Positions 16,097-34,800 of a stretch of DNA of 64,000 nt are shown here, one piece after another. The notes beneath the pieces are model-generated. The model was not told the origin of the DNA. It saw nothing but the letters and a program-made list of their open reading frames with translations, and did no database searches. The stretch comes from Kordiimonas pumila (GTDB lineage: Bacteria; Pseudomonadota; Alphaproteobacteria; Sphingomonadales; Kordiimonadaceae), in NCBI RefSeq assembly GCF_015240255.1, contig NZ_CP061205.1:372001-436000 (forward strand). The letters run 5' to 3'. Made by a program: the position numbers and the translations under genes. Each line of letters opens with the position of its first letter. The stretch's first letter is position 1.

Positions 16097-16156
16097 TGGA
16101 CTTGCTTCGGTTTAGTGGAGAGCATTTGATATGATCCTAGACTTTGGAGTTATTAC

Positions 16157-16441
16157 ATGTCTTCACATCGAGTATTGTTTACAAAAGAATTTAAGGAAGA
16201 AGCAGTTCGTCTTGCGTTAACGAGTGATCGTCAGCGACAGGATATTGCCTCAGATTTGGGCATAGGTAAATCCACTCTTTGCCGCTGGGTTAGCCAGCAT
16301 CGTCATTCAGTCCAGCCGGATGCTGTTTCAGATGACAAGGATAAGGAGCTTGCCCTTCTGCGACGGGAAGTTCAACTTCTGAAGGCAGAACGCGATTTAT
16401 TAAAAAAGGCTACAGCTCTTTTCGCCCGGGAAAGTCGGTGA
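16157..16441 (+). CDS. IS3-family transposase OrfA
   Basis: This 94-residue DNA-binding protein has a helix-turn-helix (about 10-50; FKEEAVRLAL, then DIASDLGIGKSTLCRWV) and a C-terminal leucine-zipper coil (LALLRREVQLLKAERDLLKKA). It binds the element ends and, by frameshift, provides the N-terminus of the OrfAB transposase. It is intact, unlike the other IS3-type copies in the window. Confidence 0.92.
   Translation: MSSHRVLFTKEFKEEAVRLALTSDRQRQDIASDLGIGKSTLCRWVSQHRHSVQPDAVSDDKDKELALLRREVQLLKAERDLLKKATALFARESR
16402..16408 (+). promoter_or_regulatory. A6G slippery site for -1 frameshifting
   Basis: The heptamer A AAA AAG is in the zero-frame register near the orfA end. A -1 shift here leaves the frame open through the orfA stop and straight into orfB, giving a fused OrfAB transposase. 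IS3-family elements are known to use this mechanism. The inverted copy has the same site at 19054-19060. Confidence 0.8.
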
Positions 16442-17295
16442 GGTTTTCCCTTATTGATGCGAAGAGGGCCTGTCTGCCTGTTGAGCGTGCCTGTTTGTTG
16501 CTGAATGTCAGTATGAGTGGTTATTATGCCTGGAAGAAGAGGTCTGTCAGCAAGCGACAGCGCGATGATATGGTGTTGCTTGTCCATATACGCAGCTATT
16601 TTCGCCAGTCAAACGATACGTATGGCAGTCCCCGTATGGCAGCAGAGTTGCAAGCATGTGGGTTTTCTGTTGGCCGTCGGCGTGTTGCCCGTCTGATGAA
16701 AGAGACTGGCCTGCAAGCCAGACAAAAAAGGCGGTTCAAATGCACAACAGATAGCCATCATGATAATCCCGTGTTTCCTAACTTGCTGGAGCAAGATTTT
16801 ACAGCTTCTGCGCCAGACAGGAAATGGGGTGTTGATATCAGTTATATCTGGACAATGGAAGGTTGGCTCTATCTGGCAGTTGTCATTGACCTTTATGCCC
16901 GTCGTGTTGTTGGCTGGGCCACAAGCAACAGGCTAAAAAAGGAGCTGGCCCTTGAAGCTCTGGACAAGGCTTTCATCCTCAGACAACCGCCTCCCGGCCT
17001 GATCCATCACAGCGACAGGGGCAGTCAATATTGCTCATACGAGTATCGCAAGCGTCTGAAAAAATACCGTATGACCGGCTCTATGTCAGCCAAGGGAAAT
17101 TGCTATGATAATGCCGTGGTGGAGACATTCTTTAAAACCATTAAAACTGAACTTGTCTGGCGCACAAGTTTTGCAACACGAAAGGAAGCTACAAATATGA
17201 TTGCACACTATATCGGTGATTTCTATAATCCCAGACGCCGTCATTCGACATTGGGATACTTAAGCCCCATTCAGTTCGAAAAAAGGGCCGCTTAA
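16438..17295 (+). CDS. IS3-family transposase OrfB (DDE integrase)
   Basis: This 285-residue retroviral-integrase-type catalytic protein shows an N-terminal HTH_21-like region (SGYYAWKKR, TYGSPRMAAEL) and the DDE triad: Asp in WGVDISYIW, Asp in HHSDRGSQY and Glu in NAVVETFFKTIK. The GTG start overlaps the orfA stop by four bases. The active product is expected to be OrfAB made by frameshift. All motifs are intact, so the element may still be mobile. Confidence 0.93.
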   Translation: MRFSLIDAKRACLPVERACLLLNVSMSGYYAWKKRSVSKRQRDDMVLLVHIRSYFRQSNDTYGSPRMAAELQACGFSVGRRRVARLMKETGLQARQKRRFKCTTDSHHDNPVFPNLLEQDFTASAPDRKWGVDISYIWTMEGWLYLAVVIDLYARRVVGWATSNRLKKELALEALDKAFILRQPPPGLIHHSDRGSQYCSYEYRKRLKKYRMTGSMSAKGNCYDNAVVETFFKTIKTELVWRTSFATRKEATNMIAHYIGDFYNPRRRHSTLGYLSPIQFEKRAA

Positions 17296-17332
17296 AACTG
17301 AAAATGCTCTCCACTAAACCGAAGCAAGTCCA

Positions 17333-18129
17333 CTTTCCACCTTGCTACTTTTGAGAGAGCAATTTTTAGCGGCATATCACTAAGAGGTGGCTGTTTATCC
17401 AAACAGGGATTAATGGGTTTGATACTAAGTTCCTCCAGCACTTTTTCCATAACCTCTGAAGCTTTTTTCTGCAAAATAGGCGACAGGCAAGAAAATCTAT
17501 CATCTACTTCTTTCTCACCTTCCAGATGACCAGCGAACCCCGGAAACTGGTCGGCAGGAAGCAGACAAGCGAGTTTCGTTAACGTAAAATGGCGTGCCCA
17601 GTTTGCCGGTATGGTCCAAAAACTCGAGGTGAGTTTTTTCAGATTGCGCGTGCTGAGGGGTTCACGTTTACCATCCTTACTAATGAGGAAAAACAGTGGA
17701 GCTGTCCCGACCAAGCTTTCTTTTAACATTGAAGCGAGGCCCGGATAAGGCACCTCTGCAGCAAGCAAAAAGTTTTGCAGATAGTTTAGATAAAACTCAA
17801 GTTGGTCACTCGTCGAAGTCGATAAGACTAGCGGCCGTGAGGTTTTGTCTTCGACAAACAATACCCCTCCCTTCAGATCAAAATGTAACACTGTTTTTAA
17901 AGCGGTTACATTATGGCGGTGTGCAGTTGAGAGCTGTATATAGATCCACACCATATAAGCTATCTCATTATGCACGCTGATATAATTGTCGACTGGCTTT
18001 CCGAGAACACTTTGAAGCGGCTTGACCAGATCAGAATATATCTTAGACAGGGACCTTTCATTCACTGTTAGTGCTGATCCAACTATAACGGATGATGTCG
18101 CAGGTATTTCCTTGGCGTCAAATCCTAAT
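17333..18129 (-). pseudogene. Fragment of large, degenerate tyrosine recombinase between IS copies
   Basis: About 265 codons are open across the whole interval with no start or stop of their own. The pattern is recombinase-like: WIYIQLSTAHRHNVTAL (box I Arg), VEDKTSRPLVL, then ARHFTLTKLACLLP, FAGHLEG and FSCLSP. The second Arg of box II and the final Tyr are not where a working enzyme needs them, so even the intact parent may have been catalytically weak or structural. The codon phase at either end does not match the pieces at 14311 and 19366, so simple removal of the IS copies would not restore one gene. Confidence 0.6.
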
Positions 18130-18166
18130 TGGACTTGCTTCGGTTTAGTGGAGAGCATTTTCAGTT

Positions 18167-19024
18167 TTAAGCGGCCCTTTTTTCGAACTGAATGGGGCTT
18201 AAGTATCCCAATGTCGAATGACGGCGTCTGGGATTATAGAAATCACCGATATAGTGTGCAATCATATTTGTAGCTTCCTTTCGTGTTGCAAAACTTGTGC
18301 GCCAGACAAGTTCAGTTTTAATGGTTTTAAAGAATGTCTCCACCACGGCATTATCATAGCAATTTCCCTTGGCTGACATAGAGCCGGTCATACGGTATTT
18401 TTTCAGACGCTTGCGATACTCGTATGAGCAATATTGACTGCCCCTGTCGCTGTGATGGATCAGGCCGGGAGGCGGTTGTCTGAGGATGAAAGCCTTGTCC
18501 AGAGCTTCAAGGGCCAGCTCCTTTTTTAGCCTGTTGCTTGTGGCCCAGCCAACAACACGACGGGCATAAAGGTCAATGACAACTGCCAGATAGAGCCAAC
18601 CTTCCATTGTCCAGATATAACTGATATCAACACCCCATTTCCTGTCTGGCGCAGAAGCTGTAAAATCTTGCTCCAGCAAGTTAGGAAACACGGGATTATC
18701 ATGATGGCTATCTGTTGTGCATTTGAACCGCCTTTTTTGTCTGGCTTGCAGGCCAGTCTCTTTCATCAGACGGGCAACACGCCGACGGCCAACAGAAAAC
18801 CCACATGCTTGCAACTCTGCTGCCATACGGGGACTGCCATACGTATCGTTTGACTGGCGAAAATAGCTGCGTATATGGACAAGCAACACCATATCATCGC
18901 GCTGTCGCTTGCTGACAGACCTCTTCTTCCAGGCATAATAACCACTCATACTGACATTCAGCAACAAACAGGCACGCTCAACAGGCAGACAGGCCCTCTT
19001 CGCATCAATAAGGGAAAACCTCAC
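18167..19024 (-). CDS. IS3-family transposase OrfB, copy 2
   Basis: The 285-residue product is the same as that of the frame at 16438-17295, including the DDE triad. It is read leftward and overlaps its orfA by four bases. Confidence 0.93.
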   Translation of the reverse strand: MRFSLIDAKRACLPVERACLLLNVSMSGYYAWKKRSVSKRQRDDMVLLVHIRSYFRQSNDTYGSPRMAAELQACGFSVGRRRVARLMKETGLQARQKRRFKCTTDSHHDNPVFPNLLEQDFTASAPDRKWGVDISYIWTMEGWLYLAVVIDLYARRVVGWATSNRLKKELALEALDKAFILRQPPPGLIHHSDRGSQYCSYEYRKRLKKYRMTGSMSAKGNCYDNAVVETFFKTIKTELVWRTSFATRKEATNMIAHYIGDFYNPRRRHSTLGYLSPIQFEKRAA

Positions 19025-19305
19025 CGACTTTCCCGGGCGAAAAGAGCTGTAGCCTTTTTTAATAAATCGCGTTCTGCCTTCAGAAGTTGAACTTCCCGTC
19101 GCAGAAGGGCAAGCTCCTTATCCTTGTCATCTGAAACAGCATCCGGCTGGACTGAATGACGATGCTGGCTAACCCAGCGGCAAAGAGTGGATTTACCTAT
19201 GCCCAAATCTGAGGCAATATCCTGTCGCTGACGATCACTCGTTAACGCAAGACGAACTGCTTCTTCCTTAAATTCTTTTGTAAACAATACTCGATGTGAA
19301 GACAT
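19021..19305 (-). CDS. IS3-family transposase OrfA, copy 2
   Basis: The 94-residue product is the same as that of the frame at 16157-16441, with helix-turn-helix, coiled coil and the A6G slippery site (19054-19060). Confidence 0.92.
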   Translation of the reverse strand: MSSHRVLFTKEFKEEAVRLALTSDRQRQDIASDLGIGKSTLCRWVSQHRHSVQPDAVSDDKDKELALLRREVQLLKAERDLLKKATALFARESR

Positions 19306-19365
19306 GTAATAACTCCAAAGTCTAGGATCATATCAAATGCTCTCCACTAAACCGAAGCAAGTCCA

Positions 19366-20818: not shown

Positions 20819-23800
20819 TTATGTTTGACCGCTATCATCGCCCCATTGTGGCGGCTGGAGCGAAATCAAGCAGTTAGCAAAGTCTGCAACCTCGTGCTGG
20901 CCATTTTGGCTGAGACTAAACAGAAGGTCTTCCTGTCGCGGTTGGCCAAACACCATTCGATAAAGAGCCAACCCCTGCTTCAGGCGTTTGAGTTTGCCCA
21001 CTTCTTTACTATATGGCAGCAATGGGATTCGGCGTTCAACACGCGCGGAACCTTCTTCAAATACCCAGTAAGGAACCAAATCGGACAAACCACGGGCTTT
21101 CCCCTTGGCGGCCATCTCGAAGAGTGTCTGCCAGGGATCCCCGCCGTCGTGAGTTCCAGAGAGAGCGCTCAGTCCATATCGCTCAGCAACATTCTTTCTG
21201 ACCGCATGTCCCTTATAACGATGTACACGCCCCTCCCGCTGCTCCAGATCAACCGGGTTCGACGGCAGATTCCAATGCACGATCGCATGGCACCAGGTAT
21301 GAAAATCCAGTCCCTCCTGACCTATTGAGGTCGAAGCGAGGACAAAGGGGCGAAACGGAGAATTAAAGGCATCCCTTACAGAGTCGGCACGAACCAAAGC
21401 TTGACTATTGTCGTCGCGAATATCGCCAAAGCGGAGTGCAAATCGACAGCGGGTATTGAAGTCATCCACAACAAACGCTTCTCCGCAGCTTTTTATCTCA
21501 TCAATGCGTAACTGAGCCGTGCGTAGAGACAGCACCGACTGTATGCAGTCAGCAATCGCCGCGACCTGTTCTTGCTCTGAATGCTCCTGCAAGCCCAGGG
21601 ACTCGCGAAGAACATGGACATACTCATCAAGCACAGCCTGAAGGTTACCATCAATGCCGTACTGGAGTGTTAATCGCCAATATGTCTCTTCACCCGCGCC
21701 GCGCAGCATGGCGATAGTTTCCGGCATGTTGAATAACGATCGGAATCCAGCCGCAATTCTGGCCGCGGCTGACAACAGTGCTGGACTATCGATTTCGAGC
21801 CCAACCGCGATACGACGAAGCGCTCGCAAGGAGCAGATGCCAGGCCCCGCCAACGCGAGATCGCAGAGCACATCCGCCAAATCGTCAGGCATGGGGCCGA
21901 GCGTGAGATTACCCTCAGCGACATTAACCAACAGATCAAGGTGATCCCTGAAGCGGGTACCCATTTCGTAGTCTAGCGTTGCAGATCTCCACCCCAACTC
22001 ACTCTTACACCAATCCAGCAAGCCGTTGTGCTCGTCGATAAGGATGGGAGCCGCCCAATACCAGCGTTCGTCGGCCCGCGATCCCTCCTTACCTTCAGGC
22101 AGGGTATTAATCAAATCGCGACACACCGCCTTTACTTCGTTCTTCAATTCCCTAGCACTCAGCAGCCCACGGCGTAGTGCAATCTCCAGAGGATCGATCT
22201 GGGTGGCAAGAGTGGGCGAAGGCAGCAGCCATGCAACCACTGGCATGCCCGTCAATCGACCATCTCTATCGTTGAAATCAAAAGGTCTACCAGCTTTCCA
22301 TCCGTATTGCGATGCAGGCTCATACCCCTCTACCATCCGCCGTTCTGCCTCATAGGAACAGATCGAAGCCACAGCATCGGGAACAACACTCCAAGATGAG
22401 AAGACCAGTGCTTTCGTCAGATTTTCCTTATCCCGATAAGCCCCGCCTGGTTCAATATACGCCATAGACGGTGGCATCCAGAGCAGCTGCCACATGCCCT
22501 TTTCAATAGTGTCCTCAAACAGTAAGCGCATCCTCGGGTTCGCAGGGTCGATTGTCTTGTAGCCTTCGAACTTATCTTTGCTCAACAAGTACCCGTTTGC
22601 TAACTGCAAGGCGCCTCGCAGTGCATCTGAAGGCGTACTCAACTGGGCATCTAGTTTTTGCCTCAGCTCATAGTGTTTTAAAAAATTGATTAGATACGGT
22701 GCCGATTTCCAGTACTCGATGGGCTCTCCGGCTTTGACACATACTGCCACCGCGTCTGCCGTGGCCGCGTGCTGCAGATCCTCTGGCTTAAGAGGTGCCA
22801 CCCGCTCAATCTCTCTCAACATTGAGTTATGATCGCGCGTAGTAGCGATCCGCTCAGTTCGACACATCACATCAAGAAGTGCCTGCTCAAGTTCGGACTT
22901 TTTCTGTGGAAGGTCTTCCACGACGCTGGCACTTGCATAGAGCCTAGTTCGATGTGCTGACAATAGTGCCTTGACCGCCTCTACTTTTGCAGGGTCATTA
23001 AACAGAAAGTTCAGAGTACGAACAAAATCAGGATAGTGGTCGTCCTCTTCCTTCTCCTGATCGAGGGTGAACATTTTATAGGGCGTTGCGGAAAGCAGAA
23101 GGACACGAACTTCCGGATGTTCAAAGAGCGCCGTTGCCAGCATGGAGGCTTCGTCATCACCATCCAACAAGCTCTTAAAACGCTGAAACTCATCTAGGAT
23201 AACCAGGTCTGGCTCAAGAGCAACAAGACACACAGATGCCAGCTTGCTCCTGAGCCGGCCAATCAGATTATAGCGCAACTCAGAATCTTCCCCAGGAATC
23301 TTGCTGTAGTCGCGATATCGAACAAAGCGGTCACAGCCCTCCTTCAGATCAGCATAGAGCTCAGCATCTGCAAGAACCGCACGGCGAAACGCTTTGGAGA
23401 GATCCGAATCCAGTTCTGGTGCAGGGAGGTTTTTGACTTTCACCCGCCAGTTTTTCTTCCCTGCTGTCGCCTGCAATATATTCAGCAGCCCTATTCGCAA
23501 CCGCTTGCGGCGTTCATTCTGCGCCAAAGGCAGGTCGTACAATATCCGATAGAGTATAGCCCTTTCATCGGCGTGGCCTCCCCTGCTCCGGGCATGATCA
23601 AACGCCGTTCCCGGCGTCAAGCTGATGAAATTTACCTTGTTGTTGCGCAGGGACCGTACCTGTTTGGGCAGGTAAGTCAGGCGCGTAGCAATTGTGAAGC
23701 CTTCGGTATCACTCACGTTGAGTCGGTTGACGTTTTGGGTCGCAATCGCAGCATTGGAGCAAATATAAATCACATCTACCCGGTCCACTTTATCCTGCAT

Positions 23801-23989
23801 GTGCTCCAAGGTTTTGGCGATGATGCCTCGAGCAACCAGCGTCTTGCCCAGACCAACCTCATCCGCAACAAGAAAACGCGACGTTGACACTGCCCCGTAG
23901 AGTCGTTGGAAAACATACTCAACAGTTGTTCTCTGAAAGTCCTTTAACCCTGCCAATGCAGGCGCGGCCAGAAATCGATTGCTAGGCAT
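20819..23989 (-). CDS. SNF2-type (SF2) helicase of a defence-like cluster
   Basis: This is a 1056-residue ATPase. The ATG at 23989 is chosen over a GTG three bases upstream; it overlaps the stop of the PLD gene by eight bases and follows GGGGAA. Motifs are Walker A DEVGLGKT (43-50), DEFQ box (266-269), SATPY (300-304) and the C-terminal STSIGQEGLDFHTW / LEQREGRVHRYKGH segment, which has motif V/VI character. Such enzymes translocate on DNA. It is the last gene of a leftward four-gene cluster with a PLD-like protein, a DUF6361 protein and a nuclease-helicase. A role in foreign-DNA recognition or unwinding is inferred from that company. Confidence 0.88.
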   Translation of the reverse strand: MPSNRFLAAPALAGLKDFQRTTVEYVFQRLYGAVSTSRFLVADEVGLGKTLVARGIIAKTLEHMQDKVDRVDVIYICSNAAIATQNVNRLNVSDTEGFTIATRLTYLPKQVRSLRNNKVNFISLTPGTAFDHARSRGGHADERAILYRILYDLPLAQNERRKRLRIGLLNILQATAGKKNWRVKVKNLPAPELDSDLSKAFRRAVLADAELYADLKEGCDRFVRYRDYSKIPGEDSELRYNLIGRLRSKLASVCLVALEPDLVILDEFQRFKSLLDGDDEASMLATALFEHPEVRVLLLSATPYKMFTLDQEKEEDDHYPDFVRTLNFLFNDPAKVEAVKALLSAHRTRLYASASVVEDLPQKKSELEQALLDVMCRTERIATTRDHNSMLREIERVAPLKPEDLQHAATADAVAVCVKAGEPIEYWKSAPYLINFLKHYELRQKLDAQLSTPSDALRGALQLANGYLLSKDKFEGYKTIDPANPRMRLLFEDTIEKGMWQLLWMPPSMAYIEPGGAYRDKENLTKALVFSSWSVVPDAVASICSYEAERRMVEGYEPASQYGWKAGRPFDFNDRDGRLTGMPVVAWLLPSPTLATQIDPLEIALRRGLLSARELKNEVKAVCRDLINTLPEGKEGSRADERWYWAAPILIDEHNGLLDWCKSELGWRSATLDYEMGTRFRDHLDLLVNVAEGNLTLGPMPDDLADVLCDLALAGPGICSLRALRRIAVGLEIDSPALLSAAARIAAGFRSLFNMPETIAMLRGAGEETYWRLTLQYGIDGNLQAVLDEYVHVLRESLGLQEHSEQEQVAAIADCIQSVLSLRTAQLRIDEIKSCGEAFVVDDFNTRCRFALRFGDIRDDNSQALVRADSVRDAFNSPFRPFVLASTSIGQEGLDFHTWCHAIVHWNLPSNPVDLEQREGRVHRYKGHAVRKNVAERYGLSALSGTHDGGDPWQTLFEMAAKGKARGLSDLVPYWVFEEGSARVERRIPLLPYSKEVGKLKRLKQGLALYRMVFGQPRQEDLLFSLSQNGQHEVADFANCLISLQPPQWGDDSGQT

Positions 23990-25799
23990 CACGTTCCCCT
24001 ATCGCCGACTCAAAAACACGCCACATCCCCAGAAATTCATCTGGAACCACCGCGTTCTCGGCGCCATTTGACAGGTCCCGGACCAACCGCGAGACTTCTG
24101 ATAATCGCTCCGGCTGGCGACTGAAGGTACGCGTAAGCTCTTCCAGTAAAGGAATATCCTCGCCGGCTGCCACGCGGACCAGCCATTTGGCCCAGCCTGA
24201 AGCACGCCCTCCATCTAGCCCCTGTGCTGTATCGTCACCCAGTAACAGCAGCAGGTACCGGATAAAACCTTCCTGGTTGTTGATGACCGTTTGCAGAATT
24301 GCGGCACTGCGCTCTCCAGGTATGCCTGTAATAGGAAGGTTTAGCACAAACCGGGCTGACACATCGGGATGGTTGGTCTTCAACTCAAAAGCAATGAGAC
24401 CCGTGATATAGGCTGCATCACACTCCCACACCACGGGCTCACTTGATAAAAGGGAGGTTGAATGGTTGTCAGAATGTAGAGTGATTGGCCAGGCTTTAGC
24501 GCTGACAATTCCTTCCAGGGGAGGAATTTCACCAGCCATGACCAGCGACCACAAGCTCTCCTTTGTTGCAGGGGCGCATTCCAACGAGAGCTTGGTATCA
24601 GGACCTGCGAACCAATTCCGAGCATTCTCAACATCCGCTTCCGCAGCTTGACGCTCCACATCAACAATAGACTCATTGCTGACATCAAAGTCCACCAAAT
24701 ATTCACCCAGACCATCAGCCCCAAGAAGTTCGTCAATACCGCCAACTTTGCTCTTTTTGCCTACTAAACTCACCAGAATTTCTATATTCTTTGCCGCATT
24801 CAGCGCCGCATTGGTAGCATTGGCAGATCCCATAATCAGATGGGTGTAGTCGGAGTAATATCGGGTCTCGAATAGATAAACTTTCGCATGAAGGCCCGTT
24901 GAGAGCGGATGCTCAGCGGTTGTGTTTTCTTCGCCACCTTCGGTTTCCGCCGCATCATCCAGTTGAAGGCGCCGAGTGAAGAGTGACAGAGTTTCTTGCT
25001 TCAATGCGGATAATGATTCTGGTCGTGAAATGAGCGCATCTGCAGCTATAGATTTACGCGCCAAGACTTGCAGTGCATCATCCGAGCAGAATGGCGAAAT
25101 AACAGCCATTCGATTAGCTTTCGGATTCGGAGGCTCCCAATCAAAGCCCTTTACGCCCGGCAGATGAAAAGCCAACTCATCAAAGCCCTCAGGCAGCTCC
25201 CATTCGACGTAATGTAGCGCCTCTGCAAATCGATGTGCTTGAGCCGTTCGCTCCTTGTCTTCTACGCCGGTTGCAAGATCGGGCAGCATGTCAAAGAAGT
25301 GCGCCAATGGCTTATTCAGTTCGGACTTGTGGCCAACCACAGATCCCTCAAGCTGCAGAGACAGATCCCAGGATTGATCGGTAGTCATATTCCGGCTCAG
25401 AACCACCAAGCGATACATGGCACGGCTTTGATCTGGACTAACAAAGCGAATTGCCCAGACCTTGGGATGGAATACACCGCCTCCCGGGGCAGATACCTCA
25501 ATTACTGTGTTCTCCAGAAAGCCAAACAGTGGGTTGGGCTTGGCAATCTTGGGGATATGAATACGTCCACGCTGCACATAGACAGAAATACGCTTCGAGT
25601 ACCGACGGAGGGCTTCAAGTACCGCTAACGGGTCGTGATCTGTCTGACCGTCGGCTGCCATAAGAGCCAAGTAGACAGGCGCCTCAAGCAGTAAGACAGG
25701 GTCCATTGAGAATGTGGTCGCCACAGCCTCATCAAAGATCATTCCTGGGGGTGGGGTCAATGCCGATGTGTAGAGGCTTCTGGAGTTTGGATTTAGCAT
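23982..25799 (-). CDS. Phospholipase D-like nuclease with two HxK motifs
   Basis: The ATG at 25799 is preferred because it lies just after the DUF6361 stop; a frame extending to 25898 would overlap that gene by 94 bases. The 605-residue protein has two PLD half-sites: HPK (H111, K113) with SRN near 135-137, and HAK (H304, K306) with GSANATN at 324-330. Together these can form one PLD active site by a covalent phosphohistidine intermediate. PLD-family proteins next to helicases are usually DNases in restriction-like systems (DISARM DrmC, Dpd). It overlaps the helicase gene by eight bases, so the two are translated together. Confidence 0.85.
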   Translation of the reverse strand: MLNPNSRSLYTSALTPPPGMIFDEAVATTFSMDPVLLLEAPVYLALMAADGQTDHDPLAVLEALRRYSKRISVYVQRGRIHIPKIAKPNPLFGFLENTVIEVSAPGGGVFHPKVWAIRFVSPDQSRAMYRLVVLSRNMTTDQSWDLSLQLEGSVVGHKSELNKPLAHFFDMLPDLATGVEDKERTAQAHRFAEALHYVEWELPEGFDELAFHLPGVKGFDWEPPNPKANRMAVISPFCSDDALQVLARKSIAADALISRPESLSALKQETLSLFTRRLQLDDAAETEGGEENTTAEHPLSTGLHAKVYLFETRYYSDYTHLIMGSANATNAALNAAKNIEILVSLVGKKSKVGGIDELLGADGLGEYLVDFDVSNESIVDVERQAAEADVENARNWFAGPDTKLSLECAPATKESLWSLVMAGEIPPLEGIVSAKAWPITLHSDNHSTSLLSSEPVVWECDAAYITGLIAFELKTNHPDVSARFVLNLPITGIPGERSAAILQTVINNQEGFIRYLLLLLGDDTAQGLDGGRASGWAKWLVRVAAGEDIPLLEELTRTFSRQPERLSEVSRLVRDLSNGAENAVVPDEFLGMWRVFESAIGERDA

Positions 25800-25804
25800 G
25801 ACTA

Positions 25805-27022
25805 CTACTGACTCAGCCCATTGTATAAGTCGTTCAACAGCACCTGCACAGTCGGCCACCGGTAGACCAGTGTTCCGACACCCGAATATCCGCCCCACTG
25901 TTCAAGTGCTTGCTGGTTTCTGAACCGCGAGCGCACACCCTTAAGTTTCATCTCCCTTCTTTTGATCAAATTCAATGCATCAGTATTAGCCAGAAGGTCC
26001 TCAGGGGATTTGCGGGTATGTTTGATCCAGGCCTCAATAAAGAATTTTGTTTCACCGGTTACATTGTGACCGTCATTGCTAGTCAGTTCCCAAAGTCGTT
26101 CAATTGACCACTTACGAAGCTCATCCAAAGAAAAACTTTCAATCCAATTATTGAAGCTAGTCTGATGCTCATCAACAAGTGCCTCATGGTTTTTGAGCTT
26201 GGCGAGCTGAATGTTGTACAAGAGTGAAGCCCCGTGCATCACCTCAGAAAAGAGACGCGCATGGGTCAGGAGCTCTTGGTGTTGAGTGGAAAAACTGGCG
26301 TAGTCAGGGTGCTCCCATGGGGCCAGGGTATCAGCAGGCTTGCAGTGCAACACCAGAAACGAAAGCAGACTGCCAGGGCAAGCGGCCTGAATGCACTCCT
26401 GTATAAACTCTGCTTCTTCCCGGGTTAAATTGAAACCGATCTTAGCAGGAAACTTAACTGGTGGTTTCGGCAGCTGCGGATGCCAATTCTTCGTGATATC
26501 TCGTTGTTCCTGACCGAAATCATCGCCTCTGACTCTGGCGTCCTGTTCCAGTGATTCCAATGTGCCCCAATGACGATAATCTTCATCAATACGCCTGTGA
26601 TACACATCCTGCGAGAATTGCGTCCGCCGTATTTTCCACTTACCGAGGCCTGCCCAATAAACCGAGCTTGGCAACCGTTTGAGGCTTTTTCCTGCCGTTT
26701 TTCCAAATACACCCGCCAGATCATCGGACTCCATCAACGCCTCAACTAGCTCCCTTTCCCGAAAGTCAGCTTGGGCGGCAAAATTCTCTGCAGGTACTCG
26801 TTCATCTTCTAGGGTGCGATAAATCCAGGGTACAAAAAGCATATAACGCAGCCGTGTCTGGATAGTACTGGTACCAGGAAATAGCTGATCGGCGAAGCTA
26901 TCGCGTATAGATCCTAACCCAAGCTCATCCCGACTTTCCTTCTCCTGGAACCGAGAAAGAATGCGAAGGGTGCGTTCTCTCGCTGTTGAATCATGATCTA
27001 TCCATGCAAGTTGAGATGGCAC
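25805..27022 (-). CDS. DUF6361 family protein
   Basis: This 405-residue protein starts at a GTG with GGAG eight bases upstream. Its N-terminal segment (AWIDHDSTARERTLRIL, then GLGSIRDSFADQLFPGTSTIQTRLRYMLFVPWI) is the DUF6361 hallmark, recognised from memory. The domain has no reaction known to me. The rest is mostly helical, with many Trp and charged residues and no membrane span. It sits directly upstream of the PLD gene with five bases between them, and I recall DUF6361 genes beside PLD and helicase genes in other genomes. A sensor or scaffold subunit is a reasonable guess but not shown. Confidence 0.75.
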   Translation of the reverse strand: MPSQLAWIDHDSTARERTLRILSRFQEKESRDELGLGSIRDSFADQLFPGTSTIQTRLRYMLFVPWIYRTLEDERVPAENFAAQADFRERELVEALMESDDLAGVFGKTAGKSLKRLPSSVYWAGLGKWKIRRTQFSQDVYHRRIDEDYRHWGTLESLEQDARVRGDDFGQEQRDITKNWHPQLPKPPVKFPAKIGFNLTREEAEFIQECIQAACPGSLLSFLVLHCKPADTLAPWEHPDYASFSTQHQELLTHARLFSEVMHGASLLYNIQLAKLKNHEALVDEHQTSFNNWIESFSLDELRKWSIERLWELTSNDGHNVTGETKFFIEAWIKHTRKSPEDLLANTDALNLIKRREMKLKGVRSRFRNQQALEQWGGYSGVGTLVYRWPTVQVLLNDLYNGLSQ

Positions 27023-27097
27023 GAGTTATCTCCAAATCAGAAATTTAATTGAAAACAAGTTAATTTACACAAGGTGCCCCACGAATAATCTGTCACG

Positions 27098-30000
27098 TTA
27101 CTCCCCTTCCACAATCGCACAGTAAAAATTAATCAGTTCCATCTGTTCTGGCTTAGACACAGGCGTGTTTGCTAGCGCAGGGCTACCCACGACTATAGCC
27201 AGAGCCTGAGCACGTGACAAAGCCACATTCAGACGGTTTTTATTGAATAAGAAATCCAACCCACGCGGGCTTTCAGTCGCGTCACTTGCACACATACTCA
27301 TGATCACGACGGGAGCCTCCTGCCCCTGAAATTTATCCACGCTACCAATCTTAGCTTCTGGTCCCAGCGCCACACGGAGCTTATTCACCTGAAAATTATA
27401 TGGGGCTACAAACAATATATCATTTAACGCCAAAACCCGTAATTCACCGCCCTCAATTTCCGGCCAATAATGCGTGCCCAAGAGTTCGCTGACAATATCT
27501 TTGATAACAGCAACCTCTTCATCACTACCCTGTGTATTACCCTCATGCATCACCGGCACAAATTGAACTCCGGAGCTTCTTGTTATCAATGGCCCCTTAG
27601 CCTCGATTTTATGCCTGCTGGTACTTTCCGCTGCCCTTAATCGACCTTCGTATACCTGTTCAGAAATGAGCCCTGTCACATCAGGGTGGCAGCGATATGT
27701 AACCGGAAGGAACACCCCAAGGTTATCAGGTATTGTAGCATGATCTTGCAGCAGATAGTCGAGCACTGACAGCCCGCTGTCTCCCGGATGGCTCCCCTGG
27801 ATTGGCTGGCCAAGCTGCATCTGATCCCCCAGCAGTATGATATTGCTGGTTGCCCTGCTCATGCCAATGAGGTTGGCCACAGAGACCTGTCCAGCTTCAT
27901 CAACAAAGAGATAGTCAAAGGCACCTGCTACTTCGTCGTTACAAAACCCCCAAGCGGTAGCACCAGTGCATTGTCCCAGATAATTACCTTTCACGCCTCC
28001 CACATGAGTTACATTCTCTTTAGAGAAAATTGGTTCGGATTTGTCGCCTCCGACCTTGACGAAATCAGCCGCAATGCCTTGATCTAGGCAATATTCTGCA
28101 GCCCCGTGCATCAGATTAAGGATGGCTTTATGAGAGTTGGAGCTTATCCCAATTTTCTTACCCTGCCGTAACAGCTCCCCAATGATGTGTTTAGCCGTAT
28201 AGGTTTTCCCAGCGCCTGGCGGCCCCTGAATTGAAAGGTAACTACGATCCAGATTGACGCTAGCTTCAATTACCTCCGTCAATAAATCACCCTGATACTT
28301 AACAATGGGCCCTTCTATATTACCCTTAATGCGAGGCCGACTACGGGTGAGAAAGTCAACAATAGCGCTAGAAGCAAAGTCGGTATTGAGCAGCCCTTCA
28401 ATAACAGTCTGAATACTCGCAGGAATTGGATCTGGACGCACATATTCATCGGGTACAATATCAATGGAATCAGGTAGGTTTTTTCCAGTTTTGAGAACAA
28501 TCAGACCCTCCTCGGCATCATACATCTTGCACTCAGCCTTCAGATTGTCTTCCCCGAGAATATAATAACTTTTCGCTGTACCCTTGAAGGGCTGATTAGG
28601 ATCAAAGCTATATTCATAGAGACTTGTTGCATTCGACCGATTAGAAACCTTTTCAATTTGAGCAGATGTACGCTGCAACCCAACAAGACAATCCATATCA
28701 TCATAAAGATCAATAAAGCTTTGACCCATTCTGTCAAACAGTCGCCACCATGTCGGCTTGTTTTCTCGTCTATGAAACTCCAGTGACCAGGCTAGCACTT
28801 CCATTAGCTGGGCCCGTCGCTCATCTAAGCTCTGCAATTGCCCAGCCTGTTCTAGTAATCGATTACGGAGTTGTATCACTGCCGTGACCTCCTCCGGCAC
28901 ATCCTTTTCGCCTTCGCCATCAGGAAGAAGATAGGTGATCTCGTACTTTTCTTGCTGCTTGCGCAGCCAAGCCGTCAGTTCCTGCGTGCTATCACAGTCA
29001 TCAATATTATAATTCCGAATATCATTCAGAGTTTTTGATGTTTCCCAGGTCTCTCCGTCAGGATTTTCACGCCAGTTTTCATAGACGATGATACTTTCAC
29101 CACCATTGCCCACCTCAGTATTCCGCTTGCCCCGATAGAGTAGCTCCACTGACTTGATGGAATAATTGGGGGTCCCAATCATCAATCCCCCGGACACCAC
29201 CTTATAGAGATCCACAAACACATTATTGCGCAGAAGGTTATCCACCTGCTCTTCACGGGTACCAAAGCGCCCCATCAGCTTGCGAATAGCTGCAATTTCA
29301 TAATTGGCATAGTGATAAACATGCATACTGGGATCAGCTAACCAGCGTGCATATATCCAGTCGACAAAATCCTCGAATGCCTGCTTTTCCTGATCCCGGT
29401 CATGTGCCCAGAAATCAATAAATGTTCGGCTACCATCTTCGGCATAATATGTATTGCCCCACAAGTATTCTAGCCCACCATCCATATTGGGATAGCCTTC
29501 AATATCGAAGAAAACATCCAGATCACTATGGGCCGGCAACATAGCAAGTCCTTTGACTTCGCCTGCTCCATGAGGAAGGACCTCATAAGCTGGTCGCTCT
29601 TTCCCAAAAGATGCAATTTGCAGCTGAGCTTGATGGATGGCCTTCTGGAATGTGGCATCCCCCATATTAGGAATACGCTCTATATCTGTTTCAGCAAGTA
29701 ACCGCATAGTGACTATGCCCGACTTTTCCAGGTTCTTAATCTGTTGTCGCGACAAGCGGGCCACTTGTGAAAGGTGGTCTTTTTCGATGAGTTCTCGGCT
29801 TGCTAGTTCACTCCACCGACCATAAGCTTTGCTAACAGCAGGGTCCGGGCGCTCCCCATCAAAGTTTTCATGAAATTCCAGAAAATTACGTTTCAGGCTC
29901 TGATAATACGCATAATAGCGAGCAACAGGCAGACGCACCGTTTCACCATTTCCTAGCTTAACAGCCATCTCTTTCGGGCGCACACCCTGGATCTTCTCTA

Positions 30001-30469
30001 ACATGTCTATATAGCAACAAATTTGGACTATGAAGTAAGGCTTCACGGAACTGGCTAGCTTGCTGTCCCACACCTCATAATGATAATTGCCAAAGTTGCT
30101 ATCACCTGACACCTTAACCAGATAATCCGAAAATCCAGCAAAACAACCATCTTTTAAGTACCCTTGCACGATCACTTCCTGACCGTCCTCCATGGCCCTG
30201 ATTGTCTCGGCAGCCATCCATTCATGATTGTTGGAACGCTTCAGCTCTAGGACATCAAGTCCGTCATCTCGCATAGATTGATCAACAGCTTTTTCATGCT
30301 CATCGCCCTTGAGCTGGAGACGTTTGAGCATTTCATCCTCAGCATCCATGAACTTTTTGAGCTCAGGGCTCTCCAGCTTCAGTCGCTCCATTGCACTAGC
30401 ATATGGGCTGTCCATGTATGCTGTTAAATCTGATGGTGAAAACAAAATATTACTATTTTGATACTGCAT
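27098..30469 (-). CDS. TM0106 RecB-like nuclease / RNase H-like / SF1 helicase fusion
   Basis: The ATG at 30469 has TTGGGGGA before it; an ATG at 30487 lacks a ribosome site. The 1123-residue protein joins three parts. Residues 90-160 are a PD-(D/E)xK nuclease (GFSD 112-115, DSK 135-137, QxxxY 149-153) of TM0106 type. Residues 317-500 are a YprB-like RNase H fold exonuclease (D322, E324, later NIDDCDST). Residues 740-1120 are a Dna2/Upf1-like SF1 helicase (QGPPGAGKT 748-756, DEAGQ 857-861, DKFQGQE, NVALSRA). It begins the leftward four-gene cluster and could degrade DNA or DNA-RNA while translocating. Confidence 0.88.
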   Translation of the reverse strand: MQYQNSNILFSPSDLTAYMDSPYASAMERLKLESPELKKFMDAEDEMLKRLQLKGDEHEKAVDQSMRDDGLDVLELKRSNNHEWMAAETIRAMEDGQEVIVQGYLKDGCFAGFSDYLVKVSGDSNFGNYHYEVWDSKLASSVKPYFIVQICCYIDMLEKIQGVRPKEMAVKLGNGETVRLPVARYYAYYQSLKRNFLEFHENFDGERPDPAVSKAYGRWSELASRELIEKDHLSQVARLSRQQIKNLEKSGIVTMRLLAETDIERIPNMGDATFQKAIHQAQLQIASFGKERPAYEVLPHGAGEVKGLAMLPAHSDLDVFFDIEGYPNMDGGLEYLWGNTYYAEDGSRTFIDFWAHDRDQEKQAFEDFVDWIYARWLADPSMHVYHYANYEIAAIRKLMGRFGTREEQVDNLLRNNVFVDLYKVVSGGLMIGTPNYSIKSVELLYRGKRNTEVGNGGESIIVYENWRENPDGETWETSKTLNDIRNYNIDDCDSTQELTAWLRKQQEKYEITYLLPDGEGEKDVPEEVTAVIQLRNRLLEQAGQLQSLDERRAQLMEVLAWSLEFHRRENKPTWWRLFDRMGQSFIDLYDDMDCLVGLQRTSAQIEKVSNRSNATSLYEYSFDPNQPFKGTAKSYYILGEDNLKAECKMYDAEEGLIVLKTGKNLPDSIDIVPDEYVRPDPIPASIQTVIEGLLNTDFASSAIVDFLTRSRPRIKGNIEGPIVKYQGDLLTEVIEASVNLDRSYLSIQGPPGAGKTYTAKHIIGELLRQGKKIGISSNSHKAILNLMHGAAEYCLDQGIAADFVKVGGDKSEPIFSKENVTHVGGVKGNYLGQCTGATAWGFCNDEVAGAFDYLFVDEAGQVSVANLIGMSRATSNIILLGDQMQLGQPIQGSHPGDSGLSVLDYLLQDHATIPDNLGVFLPVTYRCHPDVTGLISEQVYEGRLRAAESTSRHKIEAKGPLITRSSGVQFVPVMHEGNTQGSDEEVAVIKDIVSELLGTHYWPEIEGGELRVLALNDILFVAPYNFQVNKLRVALGPEAKIGSVDKFQGQEAPVVIMSMCASDATESPRGLDFLFNKNRLNVALSRAQALAIVVGSPALANTPVSKPEQMELINFYCAIVEGE

Positions 30470-30658
30470 AAATCCCCCAATCTGCATTGGGAAAACAATA
30501 GCCAGAGAAATATACGAAAGCAGCCATCATTATCCCCCAATAAATAAGTGGCTAAAGTAATTTCAAATAAATACTAATAAATTTTTATGTTGAAGCCTAT
30601 AAAGAAATACGCACTATTTAAAACTGTAAATTTAGCCATTAATTTTTGGGGAAATTAA
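30470..30658. promoter_or_regulatory. Divergent promoter region of the two defence-like operons
   Basis: This 189-base, very A+T-rich spacer lies between the start of the leftward nuclease-helicase cluster and the rightward TerB/BRCT-Hhe set. Both sets must be driven from here, which suggests shared control. No clear palindrome is visible. Confidence 0.5.
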
Positions 30659-31546
30659 ATGGGCCATACTGTAAGTGATAATGCCTTAATAGCTATCCAT
30701 CGTGATCGAAACAGAACAAAAATGTTTCGTAATGCCCTTGGTTTTTTACAAGGCATTGTGGCTGATGATAAAATCAATGCCACAGAGCTCCAAGCATTAC
30801 ACACATATATGCTTGAGTGTGCAGACCATTTTGATCACGGCGATATCGTTGATGTTTTAGACGTCACAGAAGATTTAGTTGCAAAAGCTCACATCGATAA
30901 AGCAAGCCAAGAAGACCTTTTAGGTGTCATCGACTGTATTATTGAATACCAAACCCCTGAAGACGCCCTTCAGCTAGAACGACTAGAGGAATTCTTAGGA
31001 GTTTGCTCTGGCCTGATCGCCGATGACGCTATCAACCAAGCTGAGGCTGAACGCTTTCAACAATGGCTAAATACCAATGAAGATATTGTAAGTGAATGGC
31101 CAGCTTGTGACATTTCACGCCGATTAAACAGTTTTCTGAATGATGGAATACTTGATAAAAGCGAGGCTGCCGAATTACTTACAGCTTTGAAGCATTTAGT
31201 GGGTGGAAGTTTTGCAGAAACAGGTTCAACAACCATCGGTCTCCCCATAGAAGTCACCAAACATCTGGCGCACGACCTTACTTTCGAGGGGAAAACATTC
31301 TGCTTCACTGGAAAATTCTTTTTCGGGAAAAGAGCTGAATGTGAAGCAACAACAAGAGAAATGGGCGGTTTACCGATCAAAGATGTCACCAAGAAGTTGG
31401 ACTATCTAGTCGTTGGCTCAATTGCGAGCCCATTCTGGTTAACATCACATTTTGGAACCAAGATTAAACGCGTGATGTCTATGCGAGAGGATAGTTTCCC
31501 CTATCTTGTCGGCGAAGATGTATGGCGACAGTCAATAAAGCTTTGA
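30659..31546 (+). CDS. TerB-like helical repeat plus BRCT domain protein
   Basis: This 295-residue protein starts behind GGGGAA. The first 180 residues form two or three helical repeats with the pattern GIVADDKINATELQAL / GLIADDAINQAEAERF, similar to TerB/DUF533-type tellurite-resistance folds. The C-terminal 90 residues are a BRCT domain of the DNA ligase A kind (FEGKTFCFTGKFFFGKRAE, MGG, VTKKLDYLVVG). BRCT domains bind phosphopeptides or DNA ends. It precedes a small protein and the giant Hhe-like helicase on the same strand, so it may load or regulate that enzyme. Function is inferred. Confidence 0.75.
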   Translation: MGHTVSDNALIAIHRDRNRTKMFRNALGFLQGIVADDKINATELQALHTYMLECADHFDHGDIVDVLDVTEDLVAKAHIDKASQEDLLGVIDCIIEYQTPEDALQLERLEEFLGVCSGLIADDAINQAEAERFQQWLNTNEDIVSEWPACDISRRLNSFLNDGILDKSEAAELLTALKHLVGGSFAETGSTTIGLPIEVTKHLAHDLTFEGKTFCFTGKFFFGKRAECEATTREMGGLPIKDVTKKLDYLVVGSIASPFWLTSHFGTKIKRVMSMREDSFPYLVGEDVWRQSIKL

Positions 31547-31863: not shown

Positions 31864-31881
31864 AGTTATTTGGACGGAAAA

Positions 31882-34800
31882 ATGGAAGAGACAGCAACAA
31901 ACGAGCAATTTCCAGTCACAGTTAAAGCATCCATTCTGGAACAAGTTAATTTTGCCTCACAGCAAAATGACGTGGCCGTCATTAGTGAGTTAGTACTGCA
32001 TAATAATACTGACGAGGTATTGGAAAATCTAACGTTAAAACTCGTTGCTGAACCTGACATAATACAAGAACATAGCTGGACTATAGATCGGCTTCATCCA
32101 CAATCAGAACTACGTATCCATAAGCGATCCGTGCACTTGTCAGCAAGTATGCTCCAAAAACTCACTGAGAGGATGACCGCGAATGTATCTCTCAGGCTTT
32201 TTCAAGGTGACAAAAGGCTTGCCTCCTTTGAGCATAAGTTAACTGTGCTCGCTAGAAATGAGTGGGGAGGAGCGAATTACATGCCAGAATTACTGGCTGC
32301 GTTCATCACCCCTAATGATCCCTCAGTAGATATACTTCTGAAAGAAGCTAGTGAGGTATTACGCCGTGCAGGTGAACATCATGCAATTGAAGGGTATCAA
32401 TCGAAATCTCGCAAACGTGTCTATACTATAGCCTCAGCCATTTGGAGTGCTGTTGCAGCAAAGCGCTTAACATATGCAGAGCCACCAGCGAGTTTCGAAA
32501 GGCTTGGGCAGAAACTTCGGTCACCCAGCCAAATCTGGGAAAGAGGTTTAGCGACTTGCCTGGATACTACTGTATTATTCGCTGCAGCGTTGGAACAAGC
32601 TGGTTTAAACCCTCTGATAGCTTTCACTAATGGCCATGCTTTTTGTGGCCTTTGGCTACAACCTCAAAGCCTACAAGCGCTCACAACAGATGATTGTGTG
32701 GAAATTCGCAAACATATTGCCGCGAAAGAACTCATACTTTTTGAGACCACATTATCAACTCATGAACCTCCTGCAACCTTTAGGCAGGCCGTTAGCCGTG
32801 GACATGACAAACTTGATGAGCAATTTGAAGAAGAATTTGTCTATGCTCTTGACCTCAAACAAGCAAGGCATAGAGGAATTAGTCCACTTCCTATACTAGA
32901 TGGTATAGCGCAAACAATAACCAACACTTCTAACCCGGAACCAATAGCTTTTGGTCTAGATGCTGCACCAGATCTACCTGCTTTTGATTTTGGAATAGAG
33001 ATAGAAAGTGGAGCCGAAGAAACTCCCGAAACAAGGCTAGACCGCTGGAGGCGAAAACTTCTTGATTTAACGAAACGTAATCGACTTTTAAACCTCAAGC
33101 CGACAAAAACTGCAATTAAGCTTATTTGTCCCAGCCCTGCCGTTTTGGAAGATCGCCTAGCAGAAGGTGACAAGATAACTGTAATCCCTCTTGAGAAAAT
33201 CACCGGAGAACAGGGAGAGAGAGATCCCGAACTATTTCGAGAGAGGACTGGAGCAGATTATGAGCAAGAATTCGCTGCACGCGCTATGGAAAGAGGGCAA
33301 ATTGTAGCCGACCTTGACGCAAAAGACCTCGAAAAAGGCATGATAGAGTTATACCGAAAGTCGCGAGCTGATATTCGTGAAGGAGGGGCAAATACGTTAT
33401 TCCTAGCTATCGGGGTTTTGCGTTGGAAGCAATCTGATGATGAGCAAAGAAGTTACCGCGCACCGCTCTTATTGTTGCCAGTAAAGTTAGAGAGAAAAAG
33501 TGCACGGTCTCAGGTAAAAATCGTTTTGCACGATGATGAACCCGTCTTCAACATGACACTCCTAGAAATGCTGAGGCAGGATTTTGAAGTTTCAATCCCA
33601 ATGCTGGAGGGAGACCTACCAACTGACGAATCTGGCATTGATGTCCCTCTAGTTTGGGAGATTGTTCGTCGCGCTGTAAAAGAAATACCTGGATTTGAGG
33701 TCCGTGAAGAAGTTGTATTGAGCACATTCTCTTTTGCAAAATATCTCATGTGGAAAGATTTATCAGATCGGACCGAAACTCTTAAAAAAAGCTCACTAGT
33801 CCGACACCTAATCGATAACCCACGAGATCCTTACGAAAGAGATGCCGACTTTATAGAGCCCAAGGATTTAGATTCTAAAATCGAGCCTAGAGACCTTTAT
33901 ATGCCATTACCTGCGGATAGCTCCCAGATTGTAGCGGTACATGCCTCCGGAAAAAATAACGACTTCATCCTAGAAGGCCCCCCAGGTACAGGTAAATCAC
34001 AGACTATTTCTAATATCATTGCACACAATTTGGCTCTTGGGCGCAAAGTCCTCTTTGTGTCAGAGAAAATGGCTGCTCTTGAAGTAGTCTATAATCGCTT
34101 AAAACTACATGGCTTAGGAGATTTTTGTTTAGAGTTGCACTCAAACAAGACAAATAAAAAAGCTGTAATTGATCACCTTGGTCAGTCTTGGAAATCCCGA
34201 CGCCTGTTAACAACAAACGAATGGGTCTCGGAAACGTCGCGATTAGGGGAATTACGCGATCATTTGAATTCTGTAGTGCAAGAAATTCATCGGCCTACAG
34301 CAAGTGGAATTAGCCCATTTAGCGCAATAGGACGTGTTGTTCGATATAGTGATATTCACAGATTACGGTTAGATTGGGACAATAGTCTCGCCTCCGACCC
34401 AATCAAAACACCAGAGGCGCTACAAGAGCTAGAAGCCATTACAGGTCAGTTGGCGCTTGCTTTTAGCGAAATTACCTCAATAGACGCTGATACTTTTCAC
34501 CTTATCAATAACGATGGTTGGTCACATGCTTGGCAAGGTCAAGTAGTAAGTGCATCACATAAGTTAGGAAACGCTGCATCTAAACTTATAGATGCTACTC
34601 AAAATTTACAAAAAGCATTTGGGTTGCCTGATCGAAGCCCTACCGAAGCTGATTTAAATGGTCTAGTTAAGTTAACAGATTGCTTGAAGGGGGCTGCAAA
34701 GGCTGACTTATCATTAGCTTTTAATGTTAATATAGATGAAGAACTAGAAATTGCAGAGTCAGCATTGGCTCAACTTAATCAATATAGGGAAATCTCCCAA

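What the first reader, a model, noticed from the sequence alone, without database searches (positions are those of the whole stretch)
20819..30469. Four-gene helicase / PLD / DUF6361 / nuclease-helicase cluster, candidate defence system
Four leftward genes are packed with overlaps or short gaps: RecB/TM0106-RNase H-SF1 helicase fusion, DUF6361, double-HxK PLD protein, SNF2 helicase. All nuclease and ATPase motifs are intact although the mobile genes around them have decayed, which suggests selection. The set lacks the DUF1998 protein and methylase of DISARM and the modification genes of Dpd, and the PLD is separate from a COG1112 helicase unlike Mokosh. I cannot place it in a named system; the 'RL' entry from Gao et al. 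2020 should be compared because I do not recall its exact composition. No methyltransferase is present, so self/non-self discrimination would have to be based on structure, replication state or another mark.
Basis: partly seen in the sequence, partly recalled or inferred. Interest (0 to 1): 0.82.

Follow-up and report, generated by a model that had tools for sequence, protein, structure and literature searches.

The report
Azaca anti-phage system plus nuclease-helicase gene
Three of the four genes are a known bacterial anti-phage system called Azaca; the fourth is a DNA-degrading helicase gene whose relatives sit beside several other defence systems.

Summary
The gene structure is confirmed; 'cannot be placed in a named system' is not. 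Genes 20819-23992, 23982-25898 and 25805-27022 match ZacC, ZacB and ZacA along nearly their whole length, in order: a complete Azaca system (Millman et al. 2022, recalled). The fourth, most upstream gene (27098-30487) is a TM0106-type RecB nuclease / RNase H / UPF1-DNA2-like SF1 helicase that no PADLOC model covers whole. The four genes are not a conserved unit: of 33 Azaca loci examined only the window has this gene beside zacABC, and its closest relative (65%, same host family) heads a DrmD/McrBC run instead. More interesting: Azaca repeatedly carries an unrelated AddAB-like pair, directly upstream of zacA in 8 of 33 loci and nearby in 4 more, and that pair moves independently of Azaca (AddA 90-92% identical where ZacC is 28-29%). 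Both modules also sit beside McrBC, one or the other beside Gabija, Zorya or Shango. I propose a portable RecBCD-like end-processing module; for TM0106 with Azaca this rests on one locus, and same-strand adjacency is not above background (17 of 24 against 92 of 123).

The parts
20819..23992 (-). zacC, SF2 helicase of Azaca, 1057 aa
   Evidence: PADLOC ZacC PDLC03830, 1207.5 bits, residues 9-1047 on profile 6-1016/1019; Pfam DEAD and Helicase_C; K50, D267, E268 in 27 of 27
23982..25799 (-). zacB, PLD-like protein with two HxK motifs (longest ORF starts at 25898; likely start ATG 25799)
   Evidence: PADLOC ZacB PDLC03829, 590.9 bits, residues 34-636 on profile 1-584/586; HxK motifs in 27-28 of 28; start codons. 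Pfam gave no match
25805..27022 (-). zacA, DUF6361, 405 aa
   Evidence: PADLOC ZacA PDLC03828, 474.7 bits, residues 1-403 on profile 1-394/396; Pfam DUF6361 PF19888
27098..30487 (-). TM0106-type RecB-like nuclease + RNase_H_2 + UPF1/DNA2-like SF1 helicase, first gene of the run (likely start ATG 30469), optional partner
   Evidence: NCBIfam TIGR03491 228.5 bits, cutoff 97.45; Pfam RNase_H_2, AAA_11, AAA_12; PDB matches SMUBP-2, UPF1, DNA2 for the helicase part
27023..27097 (-). 75-nt TM0106-zacA spacer; the consensus scan shows no terminator-like site on the - strand here

Best explanation
The locus is a complete Azaca anti-phage system (ZacA-ZacB-ZacC; my confidence in this part alone 0.95), with an optional, separately acquired nuclease-helicase gene as the first gene of the run that acts as its partner (this part about 0.4). 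Proposed mechanism: ZacC translocates on DNA and recognises or remodels invading or replicating phage DNA, ZacA couples or regulates it, and ZacB, a two-HxK PLD-type phosphodiesterase, cuts. TM0106, which joins a RecB/Cas4-type nuclease, an RNase H-fold domain and a DNA2/UPF1-like motor in one chain, then resects the nicks, ends or flaps, doing the work of RecBCD/AddAB with an enzyme that phage RecBCD inhibitors may not block. Shown: gene identities, order, intact motifs, different nearest relatives of the two parts. Inferred: every biochemical step, co-transcription of TM0106 with zacABC, and self/non-self discrimination by DNA structure or end state.
For: Near-full-length matches to all three Zac models. 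Contiguous zacABC also on plasmids of Cronobacter, Bradyrhizobium, an archaeon and a Bacteroidota. Catalytic residues conserved. TM0106 has the same 5' position and orientation as the AddB-AddA pair that precedes zacA in 8 of 33 loci (gaps 4-116 nt). Different nearest relatives: ZacC Cronobacter 64%, TM0106 a same-family genome 65% that has no ZacA; a mild compositional step, GC3 0.46 for TM0106 against 0.50-0.55 for zacABC. The host also has a chromosomal AddA-like gene at 848627-851260 (27%), so TM0106 is an extra. RecBCD as a hub used by defence systems and attacked by phages: PMC13192584 and PMC12407980 (passages).
Against: Only one locus links TM0106 with Azaca. The sister Azaca of Cronobacter has an integrase there instead, so Azaca persists without TM0106. 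Same-strand adjacency of TM0106 genes (17 of 24) is no higher than for other large ORFs in the same loci (92 of 123). Directly upstream AddBA needs only 2 changes on the ZacC tree. No activity was measured; the ZacA model was useless (mean pLDDT 44.7). The primary Azaca paper was not held.
Confidence: 0.5

Rival explanations
1. Two independent defence units lie side by side: Azaca, and a stand-alone TM0106 nuclease-helicase that defends (or repairs) by itself.
For: TM0106 occurs with no evident defence partner next to it in Legionella adelaidensis and in L059, L125 and L130 (most of those neighbours were not profile-tested); adjacency not above background; partner labels change 16 times on a 24-row tree.
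Against: It often sits next to a defence system (McrBC 5 of 24, Gabija 2, Zorya 1), and AddBA takes the same position upstream of zacA in other Azaca loci.
Confidence: 0.4
2. A new, co-evolved four-gene defence system in which all four proteins are obligatory.
For: Same strand, short gaps, intact motifs.
Against: None of 32 other Azaca loci examined carries TM0106 adjacent; 0 of 28 other same-family genomes have ZacA; the nearest TM0106 heads a DrmD/McrBC run.
Confidence: 0.03
3. A DNA-repair or plasmid-maintenance cluster (Dna2-like resection plus helicase) rather than anti-phage immunity.
For: The TM0106 helicase part resembles DNA2/UPF1; one Azaca locus lies beside Ku and a DNA ligase gene.
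Against: Patchy presence: ZacA in 1 of 29 genomes of the family and 8 of 385 of the class, one of these weak; the known anti-phage gene ProA is the neighbour.
Confidence: 0.07

Closest known systems
Azaca (ZacA, ZacB, ZacC; Millman et al. 2022, recalled; PADLOC PDLC03828-03830)
   Same: Three adjacent genes in the same order, near-full-length matches, PLD-like ZacB and helicase ZacC
   Different: Preceded by a TM0106-type nuclease-helicase gene seen in none of the 32 other Azaca loci examined
TM0106 family RecB-like nuclease (TIGR03491) fused to RNase_H_2 and an IGHMBP2/DNA2-like SF1 helicase
   Same: The fourth gene has this architecture; 23 intact relatives at roughly 31-65% identity were compared
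   Different: Here beside Azaca; elsewhere beside McrBC, Gabija, Zorya, SbcCD-like or sacsin-like genes, others, or none evident
AddAB / RecBCD (and eukaryotic DNA2)
   Same: RecB-family nuclease joined to an SF1 helicase; AddAB-like pairs occupy the same place upstream of zacA in other loci
   Different: TM0106 is a single chain with an added RNase H-type domain and a UPF1/DNA2-like rather than UvrD-like motor
CoCoNuT types II and III (McrBC-related, with UPF1-like SF1 helicase CnuH; PMC11090510, passages)
   Same: A published, nearly complete association of an McrB-type GTPase with a UPF1-like SF1 helicase, a precedent for the McrBC-TM0106 neighbours seen here
   Different: Passages describe OB-fold and coiled-coil regions in CnuH; 'RecB' and 'RNase H' do not occur in the text, and Azaca is not involved in the passages seen
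Mokosh
   Same: SF1 helicase and PLD-like nuclease in one system
   Different: TM0106 matches MkoA/MkoC mainly over about residues 840-1113, and ZacB matches no Mokosh model

Membership tests
Azaca | ZacA homologue | tested here: met
   474.7 bits, profile 1-394/396
Azaca | ZacB homologue | tested here: met
   590.9 bits, profile 1-584/586
Azaca | ZacC homologue | tested here: met
   1207.5 bits, profile 6-1016/1019
Azaca | Three genes contiguous, order A-B-C, same strand | tested here: met
   same order in Cronobacter, Halomarina, Haliscomenobacter. That this is the defining set is recalled
Azaca | Protection against phage | not testable with these tools
   needs an infection assay
TM0106 family (TIGR03491) | Score above curated cutoff | tested here: met
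   228.5 bits, cutoff 97.45
Mokosh | Full-length MkoA/MkoC helicase and a Mokosh PLD partner | tested here: not met
   TM0106 matches MkoA best over residues 840-1108 and MkoC over 924-1113; ZacB has no Mokosh hit
DISARM | DrmA/DrmB/DrmC plus methylase | tested here: not met
   ZacC hits DrmD/DrmA models best over about residues 850-930 (PADLOC at most 49.6 bits; NCBIfam DrmD 55.8 against a cutoff of 610); no DrmB or DrmC hit
Dpd | Dpd modification genes | tested here: not met
   Only DpdE/DpdJ helicase-region hits far below cutoff (DpdE 57.1 against 500)
Gao 2020 RL | Match to RL components | tested here: inconclusive
   No RL-labelled model among the hits, but I could not confirm which PADLOC models stand for RL

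The most novel reading that the evidence does not exclude
Several unrelated anti-phage systems (Azaca, McrBC, Gabija, Zorya, Shango) recruit a portable, interchangeable RecBCD-like helicase-nuclease module, either the single-chain TM0106 protein or an AddB-AddA pair, as a shared end-processing or degradation partner that escapes phage RecBCD inhibitors. The window is the TM0106 form on Azaca.
Probability: 0.3. Interest if true: 0.6.

Novelty: new member of a known kind. Interest (0 to 1): 0.4.

Why it matters
A 2026 review table lists Azaca among systems of unknown function (PMC12926258, passage). That Azaca repeatedly acquires AddAB-like or TM0106-like machines gives a direct test: does Azaca make DNA ends that these enzymes finish, and do such modules replace RecBCD/AddAB when a phage disables it? 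If so, one plug-in explains recurring neighbours of several unrelated systems.

Tried and rejected
Rejected: Mokosh, DISARM and Dpd membership; a conserved four-gene system (and the 33-locus tally); a special operon bond of TM0106 (17 of 24 against 92 of 123 background ORFs).

Led nowhere: scans of viral contigs with TM0106 and with the ZacA alignment found no relative. The genome-contig scan with ZacA gave only 2 loci. Megablast of the run against E. coli genomes: no match. ZacA profile against the PDB: PorL/GldL at E 0.0013 over part of the protein, and one chance-level hit, not trusted. AlphaFold of ZacA with two rows: mean pLDDT 44.7, no fold search made.

Literature: DUF6361 in 0 papers, ZacABC in 0, TM0106 in 2 corrosion papers, Azaca with UvrD in 1 paper, whose Azaca passage is a table row giving a PLD-like domain. 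Of the 12 papers listed with Azaca and 'defense systems' I read passages of 6; the other 6 were seen only in the listing. That I found no report of an Azaca link to AddAB or TM0106 rests in this open-licence library only. Passages of PMC12839542 describe auxiliary or backup nucleases near BREX-related systems, and PMC11090510 a conserved McrB/UPF1-like helicase link; both are precedents for parts of the partner idea.

Dropped rows: L077 (TM0106 split by an IS), L132 (split) and L101 (contig fragment) were left out of the 24 TM0106 rows. Of the 33 Azaca loci, six are not in the 27-row ZacC tree: L006 (zacA cut after 77 aa), L028 (contig end), L071 (decayed zacA), L023 and L024 (contig ends), L093 (zacC in two frames). 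The weak ZacA hits L019, L083 and L084 were not counted as loci.

Full report
What is there. Four leftward ORFs lie at 20819-30487. PADLOC profiles identify the last three as ZacC, ZacB and ZacA over nearly their whole length (1207.5, 590.9 and 474.7 bits). That is the Azaca system. The name and the three-gene definition from Millman et al. 2022 are recalled; the paper was not held. Passages that I saw confirm only that ZacC is Azaca's SF1/SF2 helicase (PMC12278908) and that Azaca has a PLD-like domain (PMC10952713).

The fourth gene. 27098-30487 encodes a TM0106-family RecB-like nuclease (TIGR03491, 228.5 bits over a cutoff of 97.45), an RNase_H_2 domain and an SF1 helicase, closest in the PDB to SMUBP-2, UPF1 and DNA2 over the helicase part. 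No PADLOC model covers the whole protein. The RecB-type, RNase H-type and helicase motif residues are kept in 23-24 of 24 relatives, so all three activities are probably real. The motif assignments are mine.

Joined separately. ZacC is nearest, among the 27 compared, to a Cronobacter plasmid (64%; sister pair, SH-aLRT 98); a cut-off ZacA in a gammaproteobacterial MAG is nearer still over 77 residues (74%). TM0106 is nearest to a gene in another genome of the host's own family (G1181, 65%). There it heads a run with a DrmD-like SNF2 helicase, McrB and McrC, and that genome has no ZacA. ZacA is in 1 of 29 genomes of the host family, the window's own. GC3 is 0.50-0.55 for zacABC and 0.46 for TM0106, the latter inside the 0.42-0.49 of six other window genes.

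Conservation test. Some flanks are short because contigs end. TM0106 adjoins Azaca in 1 of 33, the window. An AddB-AddA-like pair lies directly 5' of zacA on the same strand in 8 of 33 (L008, L065-L068, L026, L027, and L023 whose contig ends inside AddA), with gaps of 4-116 nt. In 4 more an AddAB-like pair is close but arranged otherwise: L062 (a helicase gene between), L072 (downstream), L022/L097 (convergent) and L005 (convergent, AddA only 24% identical). The other 20 show neither in the flanks held. Two of these 20 come from genomes that do carry a full-length TM0106 gene, but on another contig (G351 and G355).

The AddBA pair moves on its own. AddA of L026 is 90% and 92% identical to AddA of L062 and L097 although their ZacC are 29% and 28% identical; L026 and L008 have ZacC 84% but AddA 69% identical. 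In plasmids, 30 of the 59 records with an AddA match are at 50% identity or more, and at least 10 of those 30 have zacA next to it by coordinates (one search listed 30 of its 45 records). I opened 4 of the other 20: Shango SngA-B-C (L133), a BREX neighbourhood (L134), McrBC (L135), and a Shango-like set by annotation only (L136). On the ZacC tree, presence of any such module changes 7 times, but directly upstream AddBA alone changes only 2 times (quick tree with long branches).

TM0106 elsewhere. Full-length or nearly full-length matches were in 7 of 289 genomes of the class (18 with any match), 6 of 274 of another class (30 with any) and 5 of 79 relatives (7 with any), the window's own counted. 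Of the 24 intact TM0106 loci that I compared, 5 are with McrBC (L056, L085, L089, L131, and L124 with a DrmD-like gene between), 2 with Gabija (L060, L126), 1 with Zorya (L058; ZorA and ZorC tested), 1 with an SbcCD-like pair (L090; the second gene by annotation), 3 with sacsin-like proteins (L086, L087, L128; the first two below Pfam's cutoff), 1 between a SMEK set behind BREX and TrlF (L009, annotation), and 1 with Azaca (the window). The remaining 10 have other, untested or no evident partners. On the TM0106 tree McrBC association changes 4 times and partner labels 16 times (quick tree). Against a special bond: TM0106 has a same-strand neighbour within 150 nt in 17 of 24 loci, other ORFs of 300 aa or more in the same loci in 92 of 123.

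Interpretation. The locus is Azaca, a known system, with an added nuclease-helicase. Because AddBA and TM0106 are different proteins with similar functional parts, occur in the same place upstream of zacA, and both occur with McrBC, the functional idea that I favour is a portable RecBCD-like module that processes or degrades DNA exposed by the defence system. [quoted passage not shown] Parts of the idea have precedents: McrB-type GTPases with UPF1-like helicases in CoCoNuTs (PMC11090510, passages) and auxiliary nucleases near BREX-related systems (PMC12839542, passages). For TM0106 with Azaca the evidence is one locus, so stand-alone neighbours remain a serious rival.

Verdict. Observation confirmed; 'unnamed four-gene system' not borne out; a new Azaca member, with a moderately interesting exchangeable-partner hypothesis.

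Noticed in passing
31870-37821 (+), with 30659-31546 (+): ProA single-protein anti-phage gene (NCBIfam NF058533, 2067 bits, cutoff 1500; PADLOC PDC-S37) divergent from the Azaca run, preceded by a gene with a BRCT/LigA-like end.
   Followed up: partly
16097-17335 and 18127-19365: Two identical 1239-nt inverted IS3-family copies with 31-nt terminal repeats, 791 nt apart; the left one cuts a tyrosine-recombinase ORF (14311-16125).
   Followed up: partly
38508-40022 (-): Fic/DOC protein to the right of ProA.
   Followed up: no
L066, L093, L071, L006: Broken Azaca copies: zacB in two ORFs on a Ti plasmid (L066), zacC in two frames (L093), decayed zacA (L071), zacA cut after 77 residues (L006).
   Followed up: no
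L086:12740-16966, L087:11829-16046, L128:49-2841: Large proteins with sacsin/HSP90-like ATPase matches (two of three below Pfam's cutoff) downstream of TM0106 genes in three loci, in L086 with a small gene between; a possible undescribed pair.
   Followed up: partly
L133, L134, L062, L097: AddB-AddA followed by a helicase of about 1113 aa, beside Shango, BREX or Azaca: a recurrent three-gene unit. L134 and L062 give a weak, helicase-region PbeA match; L133 and L097 rest on annotation or length.
   Followed up: partly
L070: Azaca lies between the S and R genes of a type I restriction system in Haliscomenobacter (annotation).
   Followed up: no
phage collection record MT835621.1: The only ZacA-like match in 50,697 phage records (27% identity, 98% of the query), in an unannotated 24-kb contig from human faeces.
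   Followed up: no
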